In this document: in pieces, positions 11,031 to 60,424 of the stretch
Layout: the number at the start of each line of letters is the position of its first letter
How positions within the stretch are numbered: position 1 is the stretch's first letter
Assembly (NCBI GenBank): GCA_024123915.1
Contig: CP099650.1
Coordinates: 1,550,001-1,614,000, forward strand
DNA length: 64,000 nucleotides
Direction: 5' to 3'
Origin: Oxalobacteraceae bacterium OTU3CAMAD1
GTDB lineage: Bacteria; Pseudomonadota; Gammaproteobacteria; Burkholderiales; Burkholderiaceae_D
Program-made: the position numbers and the translations under genes
The notes under the pieces: model-generated
Told to the model about the DNA's origin: nothing
What the model saw: the letters and a program-made list of their open reading frames with translations, nothing else
Database searches by the model: none

Positions 11031-11160
11031 GGCGGATTACGGCCTTCGGCCTAATCCGCCCTACGTGTATCCGAGGTATGCATGGGTTTTGGCCGTCGGC
11101 CACTGAACTACGTTTCAATCTGGAGCCACGTAGGGCGGATTAGCGTAGCGTAATCCGCCA
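11031..11160. repeat. REP doublet 1 (two inverted GGGCGGATTA hairpins)
   Basis: Two inverted copies of a REP unit at 11031-11067 and 11127-11160. Each is itself a hairpin (GGCGGATTA paired with TAATCCGCC). The outer ends of the pair are TGGCGG and CCGCCA; the CTACGTG/CACGTAG tips face inwards. It lies between the convergent DUF885 and dctR genes and probably serves as a bidirectional transcript end. Confidence 0.9.
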
Positions 11161-25462: not shown

Positions 25463-25561
25463 CACGTAGGGCGGATTAGCGCAGCGTAATCGGCCAATGC
25501 ATGCGTTTCGACGGCACTCGGATTGGCCGATTACGGCGTGCCGCCTAATCCGCCCTACGTG
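25463..25561. repeat. REP doublet 2
   Basis: Two inverted REP hairpins, CACGTAGGGCGGATTAGC... at the left and ...TAATCCGCCCTACGTG at the right, 99 bp end to end. It lies between the convergent GGDEF-EAL and EEP-hydrolase genes, starting 46 bases after the GGDEF-EAL stop. Confidence 0.9.
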
Positions 25562-27173: not shown

Positions 27174-27272
27174 CACGTAGGGCGGATTAGCGCAGCGTAA
27201 TCGGCCAATGCGTGCGTTTCGACGGCGCATGCATTGGCGGATTACGGCGTTCCGCCTAATCCGCCCTACGTG
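27174..27272. repeat. REP doublet 3
   Basis: Same architecture and length (99 bp) as doublet 2. The left arm is CACGTAGGGCGGATTAGCGC and the right arm ends CCGCCCTACGTG. It lies between ybaK and plsY, both on the plus strand, so it may separate their transcripts. Confidence 0.9.
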
Positions 27273-32153: not shown

Positions 32154-32250
32154 CACGTAGGGCGGATTAGGCGGAACGCCGTAATCGGCCGATGCATGAG
32201 CCGTCGAAACGCCGCATGGCCGATTACGCTGCGCTAATCCGCCCTACGTA
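32154..32250. repeat. REP doublet 4
   Basis: Two inverted REP hairpins 97 bp end to end. Left arm CACGTAGGGCGGATTAGGCGG uses the GGCGGAACGCC-type loop; right arm ends CCGCCCTACGTA. It sits directly after the four-gene run. Confidence 0.9.
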
Positions 32251-32294
32251 TTTGCTCGATTCCTCGGCTTTCAGTCCACAATATTGGTGCGGCC

Positions 32295-32309
32295 GCACAG
32301 TTTTAGTGC
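32295..32309. promoter_or_regulatory. NtrC-like enhancer site upstream of the 60-residue gene
   Basis: GCAC-AGTTTTA-GTGC keeps the GCAC-N7-GTGC spacing of NtrC sites (family consensus GCACYN5RGTGC). It is centred about 115 bases upstream of the predicted sigma-54 start. One consensus position (Y) is not met, so this is a candidate only. Confidence 0.4.
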
Positions 32310-32367
32310 TTGCCCAGCCGTATCGTGTGGTGTCTTTGAGACAAAAATCTCTAGAATAGGTCGATTA

Positions 32368-32382
32368 GGACAAACTTTGTCC
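32368..32382. promoter_or_regulatory. 15-bp inverted repeat next to the sigma-54 promoter
   Basis: Perfect inverted repeat GGACAAA-C-TTTGTCC ending 8 bases before the -24 box. It could be an operator for a second regulator. Confidence 0.4.
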
Positions 32383-32390
32383 AATCTTCT

Positions 32391-32406
32391 TGGCACGACA
32401 ATTGCA
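32391..32406 (+). promoter_or_regulatory. Sigma-54 promoter of the 60-residue gene
   Basis: TGGCACGACAATTGCA fits the consensus TGGCACRNNNNTTGCW at every defined position. The -24 GG and -12 GC are separated by 10 bases. The start of transcription is expected near 32417, 34 bases before the ATG. Confidence 0.8.
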
Positions 32407-32450
32407 TTGCTATTGAGAAAGGAAGAAGATCGAATCTTAAGGAGGACGTT

Positions 32451-32633
32451 ATGAACGCAACTGAAGACAAAGCAAAATCGAATCTGTTCCACGAATCGGC
32501 AGCCGACGAACACCGTCTGCGCAGCGAGCGTATCGCCGCACGTGGTGTGTCCCTCGGTAAGGTCAAGGGAAAATACCTGATTCCGCTGGTTGGCTTGGCC
32601 GTGCTCGCCTCGATGGCCTTCGCCCAGGGCTAA
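32451..32633 (+). CDS. 60-residue C-terminally anchored membrane protein, RpoN-controlled
   Basis: 60 residues behind an ideal Shine-Dalgarno TAAGGAGG, six bases from ATG 32451. The first 38 residues are polar and charged. Residues about 42-58 (YLIPLVGLAVLASMAFA) form one hydrophobic helix near the C-terminus, so it is probably a tail-anchored inner-membrane protein with a cytoplasmic N-terminus. No domain is recognised. Its promoter is a consensus sigma-54 site with an NtrC-like palindrome upstream, which suggests a role in nitrogen-limitation response. Small membrane proteins of this kind often modulate a transporter or kinase; that is inference. Confidence 0.8.
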   Translation: MNATEDKAKSNLFHESAADEHRLRSERIAARGVSLGKVKGKYLIPLVGLAVLASMAFAQG

Positions 32634-32649
32634 AAACCCAGGACCTGTC

Positions 32650-33690
32650 CTAGACAACCTTGATTTCGTCCAGCGGCCAGCGCGGTCGCACGTTGAACGA
32701 ATAATCGCGTTTGGCCGCGTCAGGGTTGATCATCAGCCGCATCGCGCCCGCGAAGGCGATCATCGCGCCGTTATCGGTGCAAAACTCCAGTTCAGGGTAG
32801 TACACCTTGAATTTCTTCTTGGCCGCGGCGTCGTTCAGCGATGCCCGCAGCTGGGAGTTGGCCCCAACCCCGCCGGCAATCACCAACCGCTTCAACCCCG
32901 TGTGCTTGAGCGCCGACACGCACTTGGCCGTCAGCACTTCCACGATCGCATCGACGAAACCGCGCGCGATGTTGGCCTTGTCCTGCTCGCAGATATTGGC
33001 GATGACCTTCTCGTCGTGATTCTTCACGACCGTCAGCACCGCCGTCTTCAGGCCGGAGAAGCTGAAATTGAAATCCTTGGTGTGCAGCATCGGGCGCGGC
33101 AGCTTGTAGGCCGTCGGATCGCCGAACTCGGCCAGACGGGAGATCGCCGGTCCGCCCGGATACCCCAGGCCCAGCAGCTTGGCCGACTTGTCGAACGCCT
33201 CGCCGGCGGCGTCATCCAGGGTCTCGCCCAGCAGGGTGTACTGGCCGACGCCGTCCACCCGCATCAGCTGCGTGTGGCCGCCCGACACCAGCAGCGCGAT
33301 GAACGGGAACTCCGGCGGCTGCGACGCCAGCAGCGGCGACAGCAGATGGCCTTCCAGGTGGTGCACGCCCAGCACCGGCTTGTCCAACGCCAGGCCGAGG
33401 CTGCACGCGACCGACGAACCGACCAGCAGCGCGCCGGCCAGGCCGGGGCCTTGCGTGTAGGCGATGGCGTCGATGTCGGCCAGCGACTTGCCGGCGCCTT
33501 CCAGGGTTTGCGTCAGCAGCGGAATGGCGCGGCGGATGTGGTCGCGCGAGGCCAGTTCCGGCACCACGCCGCCGTATTCCTCATGCATCGTCACCTGCGA
33601 ATACAGGGCGTGGGAAAGCAGGCCGTGTTGCGTGTCGTACAGCGCAAGGCCGGTTTCGTCACAGGAGGATTCGACGCCGAGAACGATCAT
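32650..33690 (-). CDS. tsaD: tRNA N6-adenosine threonylcarbamoyltransferase TsaD
   Basis: 346 residues from ATG 33690, starting with the family's [19 protein letters not shown]. It transfers threonylcarbamoyl to A37 of ANN-reading tRNAs with TsaB and TsaE. Metal-binding His residues lie in [13 protein letters not shown] (about 106-118). Further signatures are [11 protein letters not shown] (about 133-143), [11 protein letters not shown] and [13 protein letters not shown]. Length is typical. It runs convergent to the 60-residue gene (16-bp gap) and divergent from the NirD-like gene. Confidence 0.96.
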
Positions 33691-33781
33691 GAAAGGGCTG
33701 CAAGGTGAAAGTGTAATCCGCCATTGTAATGGAAAGCGCGCCCGTTGACCTTGCATCGCCGCACCACCCGATGCCGGCACC

Positions 33782-33796
33782 GCACCGGCCGGGTGC
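33782..33796. promoter_or_regulatory. NtrC-like enhancer site upstream of the NirD-like gene
   Basis: GCACCGGCCGGGTGC, a full match to GCACYN5RGTGC and symmetric for one more base on each side. It is centred about 86 bases upstream of the predicted sigma-54 start. The GC-rich centre makes chance occurrence more likely than for an AT-rich site. Confidence 0.5.
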
Positions 33797-33848
33797 GCAA
33801 TTTTGCCAATAGGACAGGGTTTGACCCGGATTTAACGTATTTGCCGTG

Positions 33849-33864
33849 TGGCACCAGTTTTGCT
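33849..33864 (+). promoter_or_regulatory. Sigma-54 promoter of the NirD-like gene
   Basis: TGGCACCAGTTTTGCT matches TGGCACRNNNNTTGCW except for C at the R position. The GG to GC spacing is 10 bases. Transcription should start near 33875, 27 bases before ATG 33902. Confidence 0.75.
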
Positions 33865-33901
33865 TAGGGAAGGGCAAGTAAGTTGACAGCCGGAGGGCGC
33901 T

Positions 33902-34216
33902 ATGTCGGAACAATGGAAGCTGATTTGCAAAGTGAAGGATGTGCCGCTGAGCGGCGCGCGCCTTGTGCCGCGTGGACTGGCTTGGCAGGAGTTGCCGGGC
34001 GTGGCGCTGTACCGCACCGACGAGGAAAGCGTGTTCGCGGTGCTGCAGACGGTGGACGTCGAGCCGCGCGCGAGCGAGGCGCGGCGCTACTCCGTCAAGG
34101 TCGAGGATTGCAAGGTCTATCTGGACCTGGAGGAGTTGAGCGCCCCGGCCAGCAAGGCCGAGGCGGCGCTGGCCGGCTCGTTCGGTGTTGCTACGCGGGT
34201 GATGGCGTTCGGTTAA
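33902..34216 (+). CDS. NirD-like protein lacking the central segment
   Basis: 104 residues with CGGAGG eight bases before the ATG. The N-terminus (SEQWKLICKVKDVPLSGARL, then VALYRTDEESVFAV) and a later segment (RRYSVKVEDCKVYLDLEE) align with the two ends of NirD, the small Rieske-fold subunit of assimilatory nitrite reductase. The 30-40 residues that normally lie between them are missing, replaced by about 13. A C-terminal tail of about 30 residues is extra. No nirB is nearby. It may be a NirD relative with another job, for example binding a partner enzyme. The family link is moderate; the nitrogen link is supported by its sigma-54 promoter. Confidence 0.6.
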   Translation: MSEQWKLICKVKDVPLSGARLVPRGLAWQELPGVALYRTDEESVFAVLQTVDVEPRASEARRYSVKVEDCKVYLDLEELSAPASKAEAALAGSFGVATRVMAFG

Positions 34217-34245: not shown

Positions 34246-34353
34246 TGGCGGATTACGCTGCGCTAATCCGCCCTACGTGCCTCCGCGTGGGAGCGACATG
34301 TCGTGACCACGGAGACACGTAGGGCGGATTAGGCGGAACGCCGTAATCCGCCA
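34246..34353. repeat. REP doublet 5
   Basis: Inverted REP hairpins at 34246-34279 and 34316-34353, with the CTACGTG/CACGTAG tips facing inwards as in doublet 1. They begin 30 bases after the NirD-like stop and lie between it and convergent aroG. Confidence 0.9.
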
Positions 34354-60324: not shown

Positions 60325-60424
60325 CACGTAGGGCGGATTAGGCGGCACGCCGTAATCGGCCATGCCGGCGTTGTCGGCCGCTCACAAATGGCCGATTACG
60401 GCTTCGCCTAATCCGCCCTACCTG
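60325..60424. repeat. REP doublet 6
   Basis: Two inverted REP hairpins 100 bp end to end (CACGTAGGGCGGATTAGG ... CCTAATCCGCCCTACCTG; the right tip has CTACCTG instead of CTACGTG). It begins 10 bases after the chemoreceptor stop, between convergent genes. Confidence 0.9.

What the first reader, a model, noticed from the sequence alone, without database searches (positions are those of the whole stretch)
32295..34216. Two sigma-54 promoters with NtrC-like enhancers drive two small unstudied proteins around tsaD
Sigma-54 promoters are rare, yet two near-consensus sites (32391-32406, every defined position met; 33849-33864, one mismatch) lie 1.5 kb apart. Each has the required 10-base GG-GC spacing and each leads straight into a small gene with a strong ribosome-binding site. 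A GCAC-N7-GTGC palindrome sits 115 and 86 bases upstream of the two predicted starts, where NtrC enhancers belong. Together this suggests a nitrogen-limitation pair: a 60-residue membrane protein and a NirD-like protein.
Basis: partly seen in the sequence, partly recalled or inferred. Interest (0 to 1): 0.72.

Follow-up and report, generated by a model that had tools for sequence, protein, structure and literature searches.

The report
Nitrogen-starvation promoters driving two relic genes
Two real, strongly conserved nitrogen-starvation promoters flank a housekeeping gene in Duganella and drive two tiny proteins that look like stripped-down leftovers of a nitrate transporter and a nitrite-reductase subunit, kept by selection although their original jobs appear to be gone.

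Summary
Both sigma-54 sites and both GCAC-N7-GTGC palindromes are at the stated places; the sites are two of only 19 exact TGGCAY-N5-TTGCW sites in the 7.48-Mb genome. Across 73 genomes of the genus, all 47 with the NirD-like gene have a site of at least 9 of 12 (46 at least 10); of 26 without it none reaches 10. Small-gene types 1 and 2 have a site in 47 of 48 genomes; type 3 in 0 of 7. The same palindrome precedes glnA, glnK-amtB, urease and nasA here, so NtrC control is likely (expression untested).

New is what the genes are. In 17 relatives the small gene's place holds a sigma-54-driven nitrate transporter operon, nrtABC. The 60-aa protein matches the N-terminal tail and first helix of that NrtB; none of 35 type-1 genomes has nrtABC there. 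It is probably a relic left when another nrtABC, beside nirBD, took over. The NirD-like protein descends from a Rieske NirD whose cluster ligands were lost about eight times while both ends and the promoter stayed. Both genes are under purifying selection. Their present functions are unknown; binding roles are inferred.

The parts
32295..32309 (+). NtrC-type palindrome GCACAGTTTTAGTGC (probable enhancer); a one-mismatch copy CCACAATATTGGTGC lies at 32276-32290
   Evidence: exact palindrome within 130 bp upstream in 24 of 35 type-1 promoters, one mismatch in 2, none in 9
32391..32406 (+). sigma-54 promoter element (-24/-12), TGGCACGACAATTGCA
   Evidence: at least 10 of 12 in 35 of 35 type-1 genomes
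32451..32633 (+). 60-aa protein with one C-terminal membrane segment; apparent NrtB N-terminal relic (type 1)
   Evidence: hydrophobic segment residues 42-58; NrtB similarity; dN/dS 0.242; no NCBIfam match
32650..33690 (-). tsaD, tRNA threonylcarbamoyladenosine transferase (marker gene of the locus, not part of the regulated pair)
   Evidence: TIGR03723 437.5 bits, cut-off 296.1
33782..33796 (+). NtrC-type palindrome GCACCGGCCGGGTGC (probable enhancer)
   Evidence: exact in 39 of 47 NirD-like promoters, one mismatch in 5, none in 3
33849..33864 (+). sigma-54 promoter element (-24/-12), TGGCACCAGTTTTGCT
   Evidence: at least 9 of 12 in 47 of 47 genomes with the gene
33902..34216 (+). 104-aa NirD-like protein lacking the Rieske cluster-binding stretch
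   Evidence: dN/dS 0.244 in the type-1 clade

Best explanation
Two NtrC-activated sigma-54 promoters switch on two small genes when ammonium is short. Supported by comparison, not by expression data: each -24/-12 element with its upstream palindrome is a working NtrC-dependent promoter. Supported by comparison: the locus once held nitrate-assimilation genes, [sigma-54]-nrtABC on one side of tsaD and a Rieske-type NirD paralogue on the other. In the lineage of this genome a different nrtABC stands next to nasA-nirBD; the tsaD-side copy is gone except for its promoter region and the NrtB N-terminal tail with the first helix, which survives as the 60-aa protein. The NirD paralogue lost its cluster-binding stretch. 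Inferred: both are now binding-only proteins. The small protein would sit in the inner membrane with its basic tail (RSERIAARGVxL) inside, contacting a cytosolic regulator or a nitrogen-uptake system; the NirD-like protein would act by protein contact without electron transfer, tuning nitrogen metabolism while nitrogen is scarce.
For: Promoters conserved: site in 47 of 48 type-1/2 small-gene genomes and 47 of 47 NirD-like genomes, against 0 of 26 reaching 10 of 12 where the NirD-like gene is absent; 48 of 50 named loci. Palindromes conserved with varied cores and shared with glnA, nlmA/glnK/amtB, ureD and nasA; nlmAglnKamtB is NtrC-dependent in Herbaspirillum seropedicae (PMC3023670, passages). 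NrtB relic: nrtABC occupies the same interval in 17 of 73 genomes and in 0 of 35 type-1 genomes; profile score 63.1 against at most 22.9 in 150 shuffles; pairwise 102 against at most 44; NrtB of the two places forms two clades with 100/100 support. NirD origin: orthologues with both Rieske ligand pairs in 8 of 47, scoring as Rieske and NirD. Selection: dN/dS 0.24 for both genes.
Against: No expression data. 11 of 35 type-1 and 8 of 47 NirD-like promoters lack the exact palindrome; type-2 small-gene promoters have it in only 3 of 12, and nas-locus nrtA promoters in only 2 of 21. Type-3 small genes have no site of 10 of 12 (0 of 7). DNA identity between the small gene and nrtB is weak (score 38 against at most 30 shuffled). 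Types 2 and 3 are not explained by one NrtB truncation. NirB occurs in 73 of 74 genomes, so co-occurrence says nothing about function. The small protein persists in 12 of 13 type-2 genomes and in G040 without any NrtB hit, so an NrtABC partner is unlikely. Binding roles are not tested.
Confidence: 0.75

Rival explanations
1. The sites are sigma-54 promoters, but the activator is another enhancer-binding protein (for example one sensing nitrate or another stress), not NtrC.
For: Several promoters lack an exact palindrome (9 of 35 type-1 and 3 of 47 NirD-like have none even with one mismatch; 9 of 12 type-2 have none). Other response regulators with the same output domains were not excluded.
Against: The palindrome recurs at glnA (three copies), nlmA/glnK/amtB, ureD (two) and nasA in this genome, and in Herbaspirillum nlmAglnKamtB is NtrC-dependent (PMC3023670, passages).
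Confidence: 0.15
2. The small protein is not an NrtB remnant but an old independent gene that once stood behind nrtC (type 3) and drifted towards a motif also found in NrtB.
For: Type 3 lies between nrtC and tsaD in 6 of its 7 genomes; type 2 resembles type 3 (53.5) more than NrtB (42.1), and type 2 resembles type 1 (49.6).
Against: Type 1 matches NrtB best (63.1; tail alone 49.0) and type 3 only weakly (19.7), below the largest shuffle score for NrtB of 22.9; the neighbours of the type-1 clade on the TsaD tree (L154, L165, L172, L174 and L184-L186) have nrtABC but no type-3 gene found.
Confidence: 0.2
3. The NirD-like protein inhibits RelA, as E. coli NirD does, and damps the stringent response during nitrogen limitation.
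For: E. coli NirD binds the RelA catalytic domains and inhibits them, and the E50K mutant loses RelA binding but still binds NirB (PMC8321558, abstract and passages).
Against: E50 falls at the edge of the stretch missing from the short form in the alignment to 2jo6, and that stretch is not conserved among short forms.
Confidence: 0.1
4. Both genes are decaying remnants: the promoters persist by inertia and the proteins do nothing.
For: Both have lost the catalytic parts of their ancestors; dN/dS is higher than for tsaD (0.24 against 0.065); one NirD-like copy is frame-shifted (G175).
Against: dN/dS well below 1 over 35 and 30 sequences with mean dS 0.77 and 0.56; conserved blocks at both ends of the NirD-like protein; promoters kept where the gene is kept and not found where it is absent.
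Confidence: 0.12

Closest known systems
NtrC/sigma-54 nitrogen-limitation promoters (nlmA-glnK-amtB of Herbaspirillum seropedicae, PMC3023670; glnA)
   Same: -24/-12 element with GCAC-N7-GTGC palindromes upstream; the same layout stands at glnA, nlmA/glnK/amtB and ureD of this genome
   Different: the genes driven here are two small uncharacterised proteins around tsaD
NrtB, nitrate ABC transporter permease (TIGR01183)
   Same: N-terminal tail RSERxAAxGxxL and first helix, same chromosomal interval in relatives
   Different: the rest of the permease and its partners nrtA and nrtC are absent at this locus
NirD, assimilatory nitrite reductase small subunit (TIGR02378), and Rieske ferredoxins (PF00355)
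   Same: N-terminal WKxICKxxD and strand pattern; long orthologues at the same place carry both Rieske ligand pairs
   Different: the window protein lacks the cluster-binding stretch, has no nirB beside it and carries a conserved APASKAEAALAG tail
E. coli NirD as RelA inhibitor (PMC8321558)
   Same: precedent for a NirD protein working by protein contact apart from nitrite reduction
   Different: the residue that matters there (E50) lies at the edge of the stretch lost here

Membership tests
sigma-54 promoter | GG and GC ten bases apart in TGGCAYR-N4-TTGCW | tested here: met
   12 of 12 and 11 of 12 defined positions
sigma-54 promoter | RpoN encoded in the genome | tested here: met
   PF04552 match E 6.2e-65
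sigma-54 promoter | conserved before the same gene in relatives | tested here: met
   47 of 48 (types 1 and 2) and 47 of 47 genomes; type 3 0 of 7
sigma-54 promoter | transcription lost without rpoN | not testable with these tools
   no expression data
NtrC-activated promoter | GCAC-N7-GTGC operator upstream of the -24 element | tested here: met
   both window promoters; 24 of 35 and 39 of 47 relatives exact
NtrC-activated promoter | same operator at known NtrC targets of this genome, NtrC encoded | tested here: met
   glnA, nlmA/glnK/amtB, ureD, nasA; NtrC TIGR01818
NtrC-activated promoter | expression dependent on NtrC and ammonium | not testable with these tools
   no expression data
NirD (TIGR02378) | score over the curated cut-off | tested here: not met
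   window protein 16.6 against 74.65; long orthologues P0158 77.0 and P0182 86.8 pass, P0145 67.4 does not
NirD (TIGR02378) | encoded with nirB | tested here: not met
   neighbours are tsaD and aroG-like DAHP synthase (the latter named by recall); nirB with its own NirD lies at 7.17 Mb
Rieske [2Fe-2S] protein | C-x-H and C-x2-H cluster ligands | tested here: not met
   absent from the window protein; present in 8 of 47 genus orthologues
Rieske [2Fe-2S] protein | Rieske fold base | tested here: inconclusive
   best PDB matches are Rieske ferredoxins and NirD but E is 0.038 or worse and the model is weak, pLDDT 60.3
NrtB (TIGR01183) | permease with several helices and ABC partner genes | tested here: not met
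   60 aa with one hydrophobic segment; no nrtA or nrtC motif in the 73 neighbourhoods of type-1 genomes (0 of 35)

The most novel reading that the evidence does not exclude
A nitrate-transporter operon that was lost from its site left behind its NtrC/sigma-54 promoter and the first helix of its permease, which became a selected nitrogen-starvation microprotein. Beside it a NirD paralogue repeatedly lost its Rieske cluster site and became a non-redox regulator under the same control. Together they would form an uncharacterised nitrogen-stress module built from the binding parts of nitrate-assimilation proteins.
Probability: 0.35. Interest if true: 0.72.

Novelty: new variant of a known kind. 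Interest (0 to 1): 0.52.

Why it matters
It adds two conserved, uncharacterised proteins to the likely nitrogen-limitation regulon of a common soil and plant-associated group. It gives a traceable case of an operon superseded elsewhere in the genome whose leftover fragment stayed under selection as a microprotein. It also shows about eight apparent losses of the Rieske cluster ligands in one gene with its promoter kept, which points to a NirD-family role that needs no redox chemistry. Both can be tested directly in Duganella strains.

Tried and rejected
Small protein as a regulator of the remaining NrtABC: weakened, because 12 of 13 type-2 genomes and G040 have no NrtB hit at E 1e-60. Co-occurrence with nitrite reduction as a functional test: uninformative, NirB is in 73 of 74 genomes. 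RelA inhibition by the NirD-like protein: kept only as a low rival. Relocation of the tsaD-side nrtABC to the nas locus: less favoured than replacement, since the two NrtB types form two separate clades and G131, outside the type-1 clade, has the nas type. Palindrome frequency alone as evidence: rejected, 6 in the window against 3.07 expected. Clustering of two sites alone is modest, about 0.07 by a hand calculation for 19 sites in 7.48 Mb; conservation carries the claim.

Faults found and corrected: loci of minus-strand genome-search hits are not turned, so one search was redone. A regular expression missed nrtC in three genomes, so 14 became 17; the counter and the nrt labels and nrt change count carry the older number. 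One search extracted NrtB wrongly and was redone. One search stopped with an error and was redone. The TsaD tree is a quick tree of one gene. The eight losses assume irreversible loss, inheritance together with tsaD and an ancestral cluster; states of the eight outgroup rows were set by hand. The structure model is weak (pLDDT 60.3), so the fold search (no match at E 0.001 or better) is only consistent with a Rieske base; the alignment used for the model also held long Rieske forms.

Literature: ten full-text searches. Searches found nothing; the lists of 57, 66, 83, 90 and 111 were cut (10 of 21, 8 of 57, 5 of 203, 6 of 230, 5 of 27). Among the titles and abstracts listed I saw none on these genes, on a cluster-less NirD paralogue or on an NrtB-derived small protein. 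The library holds only open-licence PMC papers.
Full report
The observation. They are the only exact TGGCAYNNNNNTTGCW matches in the window; 0.12 are expected and 1 of 100 shuffles gave two or more. The whole 7.48-Mb genome has 19, against 9 for the reverse-read control. The palindromes at 32295-32309 and 33782-33796 are exact, but such palindromes alone are not rare (6 in the window, 3.07 expected). tsaD is confirmed between the genes. Names given by sources to relatives are Duganella, Rugamonas, Pseudoduganella, Massilia and Janthinobacterium; the closest named relatives of the NirD-like protein are Duganella. The type-1 small protein was found in 3 of 116 genomes sampled over the family, all of the window's genus.

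Conservation. I fetched the tsaD neighbourhood of 72 of the 73 other genomes held for the genus (G169 had no tsaD hit) and added the window, 73 in all. The small gene is present as type 1 in 35, type 2 in 13 and type 3 in 7; the NirD-like gene in 47. A site of at least 10 of 12 lies in the left flank in 35 of 35 type-1 and 12 of 13 type-2 genomes, and in 0 of 7 type-3 genomes. On the right a site of at least 9 lies in 47 of 47 genomes with the NirD-like gene (46 at least 10); among the 26 without the gene three reach 9 and none 10. As controls, the opposite strand reaches 10 in 6 of 73 (left) and 2 of 73 (right) and a stretch inside tsaD in 0 of 73. Among 50 named loci found by protein search, 48 have a TGGCA-type site of at least 9 upstream of the NirD-like start; L278 and L290 have none. 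Rows are related species, many of them the same in both sets, so these are not independent trials.

Activator. Exact GCAC-N7-GTGC stands within 130 bp upstream in 24 of 35 type-1 promoters (2 more with one mismatch, 9 none), 39 of 47 NirD-like promoters (5 with one mismatch, 3 none) and 3 of 12 type-2 promoters; shuffles give 0.2 to 0.6% per region. The N7 cores vary (13 and 19 different ones), as expected for an operator of two half-sites. In NirD-like promoters the distance from the site takes values near 33, 44, 54, 67 and 75; the vector strength at an 11-base period is 0.91 over all rows and 0.85 over the five distance classes. This fits whole helical turns, but few independent events underlie it. 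In this genome the same palindrome precedes sigma-54-like sites at glnA (three), nlmA/glnK/amtB (one, at -139), ureD (two) and nasA (-112); a second amtB has one-mismatch copies, and the nas-locus nrtA has only imperfect copies. The glnA and second amtB sites themselves score only 9 and 10 of 12. UreD, the NarK-type transporter, NrtB, NirD and NtrC were checked against families and AmtB by Pfam; NirB, glnA, glnK and nlmA were named from sequence and position by recall. In Herbaspirillum seropedicae nlmAglnKamtB is NtrC-dependent and an ntrC mutant cannot grow on nitrate (PMC3023670, passages read). NtrC control is therefore the best reading; no expression data were available.

Origin of the 60-aa protein. 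In 17 of 73 genomes the interval before tsaD holds nrtABC (gene order read in L219-L222). All 17 have a sigma-54 site of at least 11 of 12 upstream of nrtB at the distance of the nrtA start, 15 with an exact palindrome within 200 bp. A tsaD-side ATPase passes the nitrate ABC model TIGR01184 (327.7 against 291.8). None of the 35 type-1 genomes has nrtABC there. NrtB from these loci begins with a tail RSERxAAKGxxL followed by KYLPPLIGLALLVLAW (wording of L154); the window protein has RSERIAARGVSL...KYLIPLVGLAVL. Profile comparison scores 63.1 against at most 22.9 in 150 column shuffles; the tail alone gives 49.0. The pairwise score reaches 102 against at most 44 in 500 shuffles for L154 (the best of 35 type-1 sequences was taken for each of eight NrtBs, while the shuffles used that one sequence, which favours the observed value somewhat). 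DNA similarity is weak (38 against at most 30). The region upstream of the promoter also resembles that of nrtA (TTGGTGC followed by GCACA...GTGC), by eye only.

One nrtABC per genome. With the window genome's NrtB as query at E 1e-60, 17 of 74 genomes have the protein at tsaD, 36 have it within about 11 kb of nirB (34 of the 35 type-1 genomes, G131 and G169) and 21 have none, including 12 of 13 type-2 genomes; none has it at both places. Five genomes have a further match of 47-48% identity, which I did not count as NrtB. A tree of 38 NrtB proteins (17 tsaD-side, 21 of the 36 others) separates the two types with 100/100 support. On the TsaD DNA tree the type-1 clade (support 80) lies next to genomes that keep nrtABC at tsaD. 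The simplest history is that another nrtABC took over and the tsaD-side copy was lost, leaving promoter and NrtB N-terminus. Types 2 and 3 are less clear: type 2 matches both NrtB (42.1) and type 3 (53.5), and type 3 stands beside nrtC in 6 of 7 genomes.

Origin of the NirD-like protein. The window protein fails the NirD model (16.6 against 74.65), but orthologues at the same place are 136-139 aa with C-x-H...C-x2-H and match Rieske and NirD models. Of the 47 genus orthologues 8 keep both ligand pairs, 3 are long but degenerate and 36 are short (one of the 36, G175, is frame-shifted). What is left of the middle stretch differs between lineages. With irreversible loss on the TsaD tree and weak branches collapsed, 8 losses of the ligands are needed, outgroup rows included; four of these groups are short forms only, three are long degenerate forms and one is mixed. 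N-terminal MSEQWKxICKxKD, RGLAWQELPG and the tail APASKAEAALAG stay conserved. In many other family genomes the nearest relatives follow an ORF that I take, by recall, for the end of nirB.

Are they real genes? The Nei-Gojobori ratio of mean dN to mean dS is 0.242 for the small gene (35 sequences, 562 of 595 pairs with dS between 0.1 and 1.5), 0.244 for the short NirD-like gene in the type-1 clade (30 sequences, 433 of 435 pairs; L183 dropped as frame-shifted) and 0.065 for tsaD (35 sequences, 594 of 595 pairs). Both are constrained but evolve faster than tsaD. The small protein has one hydrophobic segment, residues 42-58, and a net charge of +3 before it, so it probably sits in the membrane with the tail inside.

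How it may work. Shown by comparison: conserved promoters, operators like those of known nitrogen genes, purifying selection. Inferred: ammonium shortage activates NtrC, which activates sigma-54 polymerase at both promoters; the two products act by contact because the catalytic parts of their ancestors are gone. E. coli NirD gives a precedent, binding and inhibiting RelA (PMC8321558, abstract and passages read), but its critical E50 lies at the edge of the stretch missing here. The small protein persists in genomes without NrtB, so its partner is probably not NrtABC.

Limits. No transcript data; one gene tree; a weak structure model (pLDDT 60.3; best PDB matches are Rieske ferredoxins, with NirD further down, E 0.038 or worse); the genus is as defined by the genome collection. 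Novelty is judged from ten full-text searches with partly cut lists; only two papers were opened, the others were seen as listings.

Noticed in passing
window 11052-11142, 25466-25558, 27177-27269, 32157-32247, 34264-34331, 60328-60421: Six copies of a 68-94 bp element whose ends GTAGGGCGGATTA are inverted to each other (12 matches, 0.02 expected), two of them beside the two genes studied; looks like a MITE or REP-type repeat.
   Followed up: partly
window about 32320-32357: A block between palindrome and -24 element (around GTGTGG and ACAA...AAT) is conserved at a fixed distance in type-1 promoters; no factor assigned.
   Followed up: no
L183 / L230 (G175): The NirD-like gene is frame-shifted in this metagenome-derived genome while its sigma-54 site is intact.
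   Followed up: no
L199, L204, L207-L210: A different small membrane protein (type 3...TGIAAGLLALVGLSAWLLA) lies between nrtC and tsaD without a strong sigma-54 site of its own; its role beside nrtABC is unknown.
   Followed up: partly
G000:C1:1186537 (L124): Another exact sigma-54 site (TGGCACGAGCCTTGCT) lies 27 bases before an ORF that looks like a flavin amine oxidase (named by recall), with no palindrome upstream.
   Followed up: no
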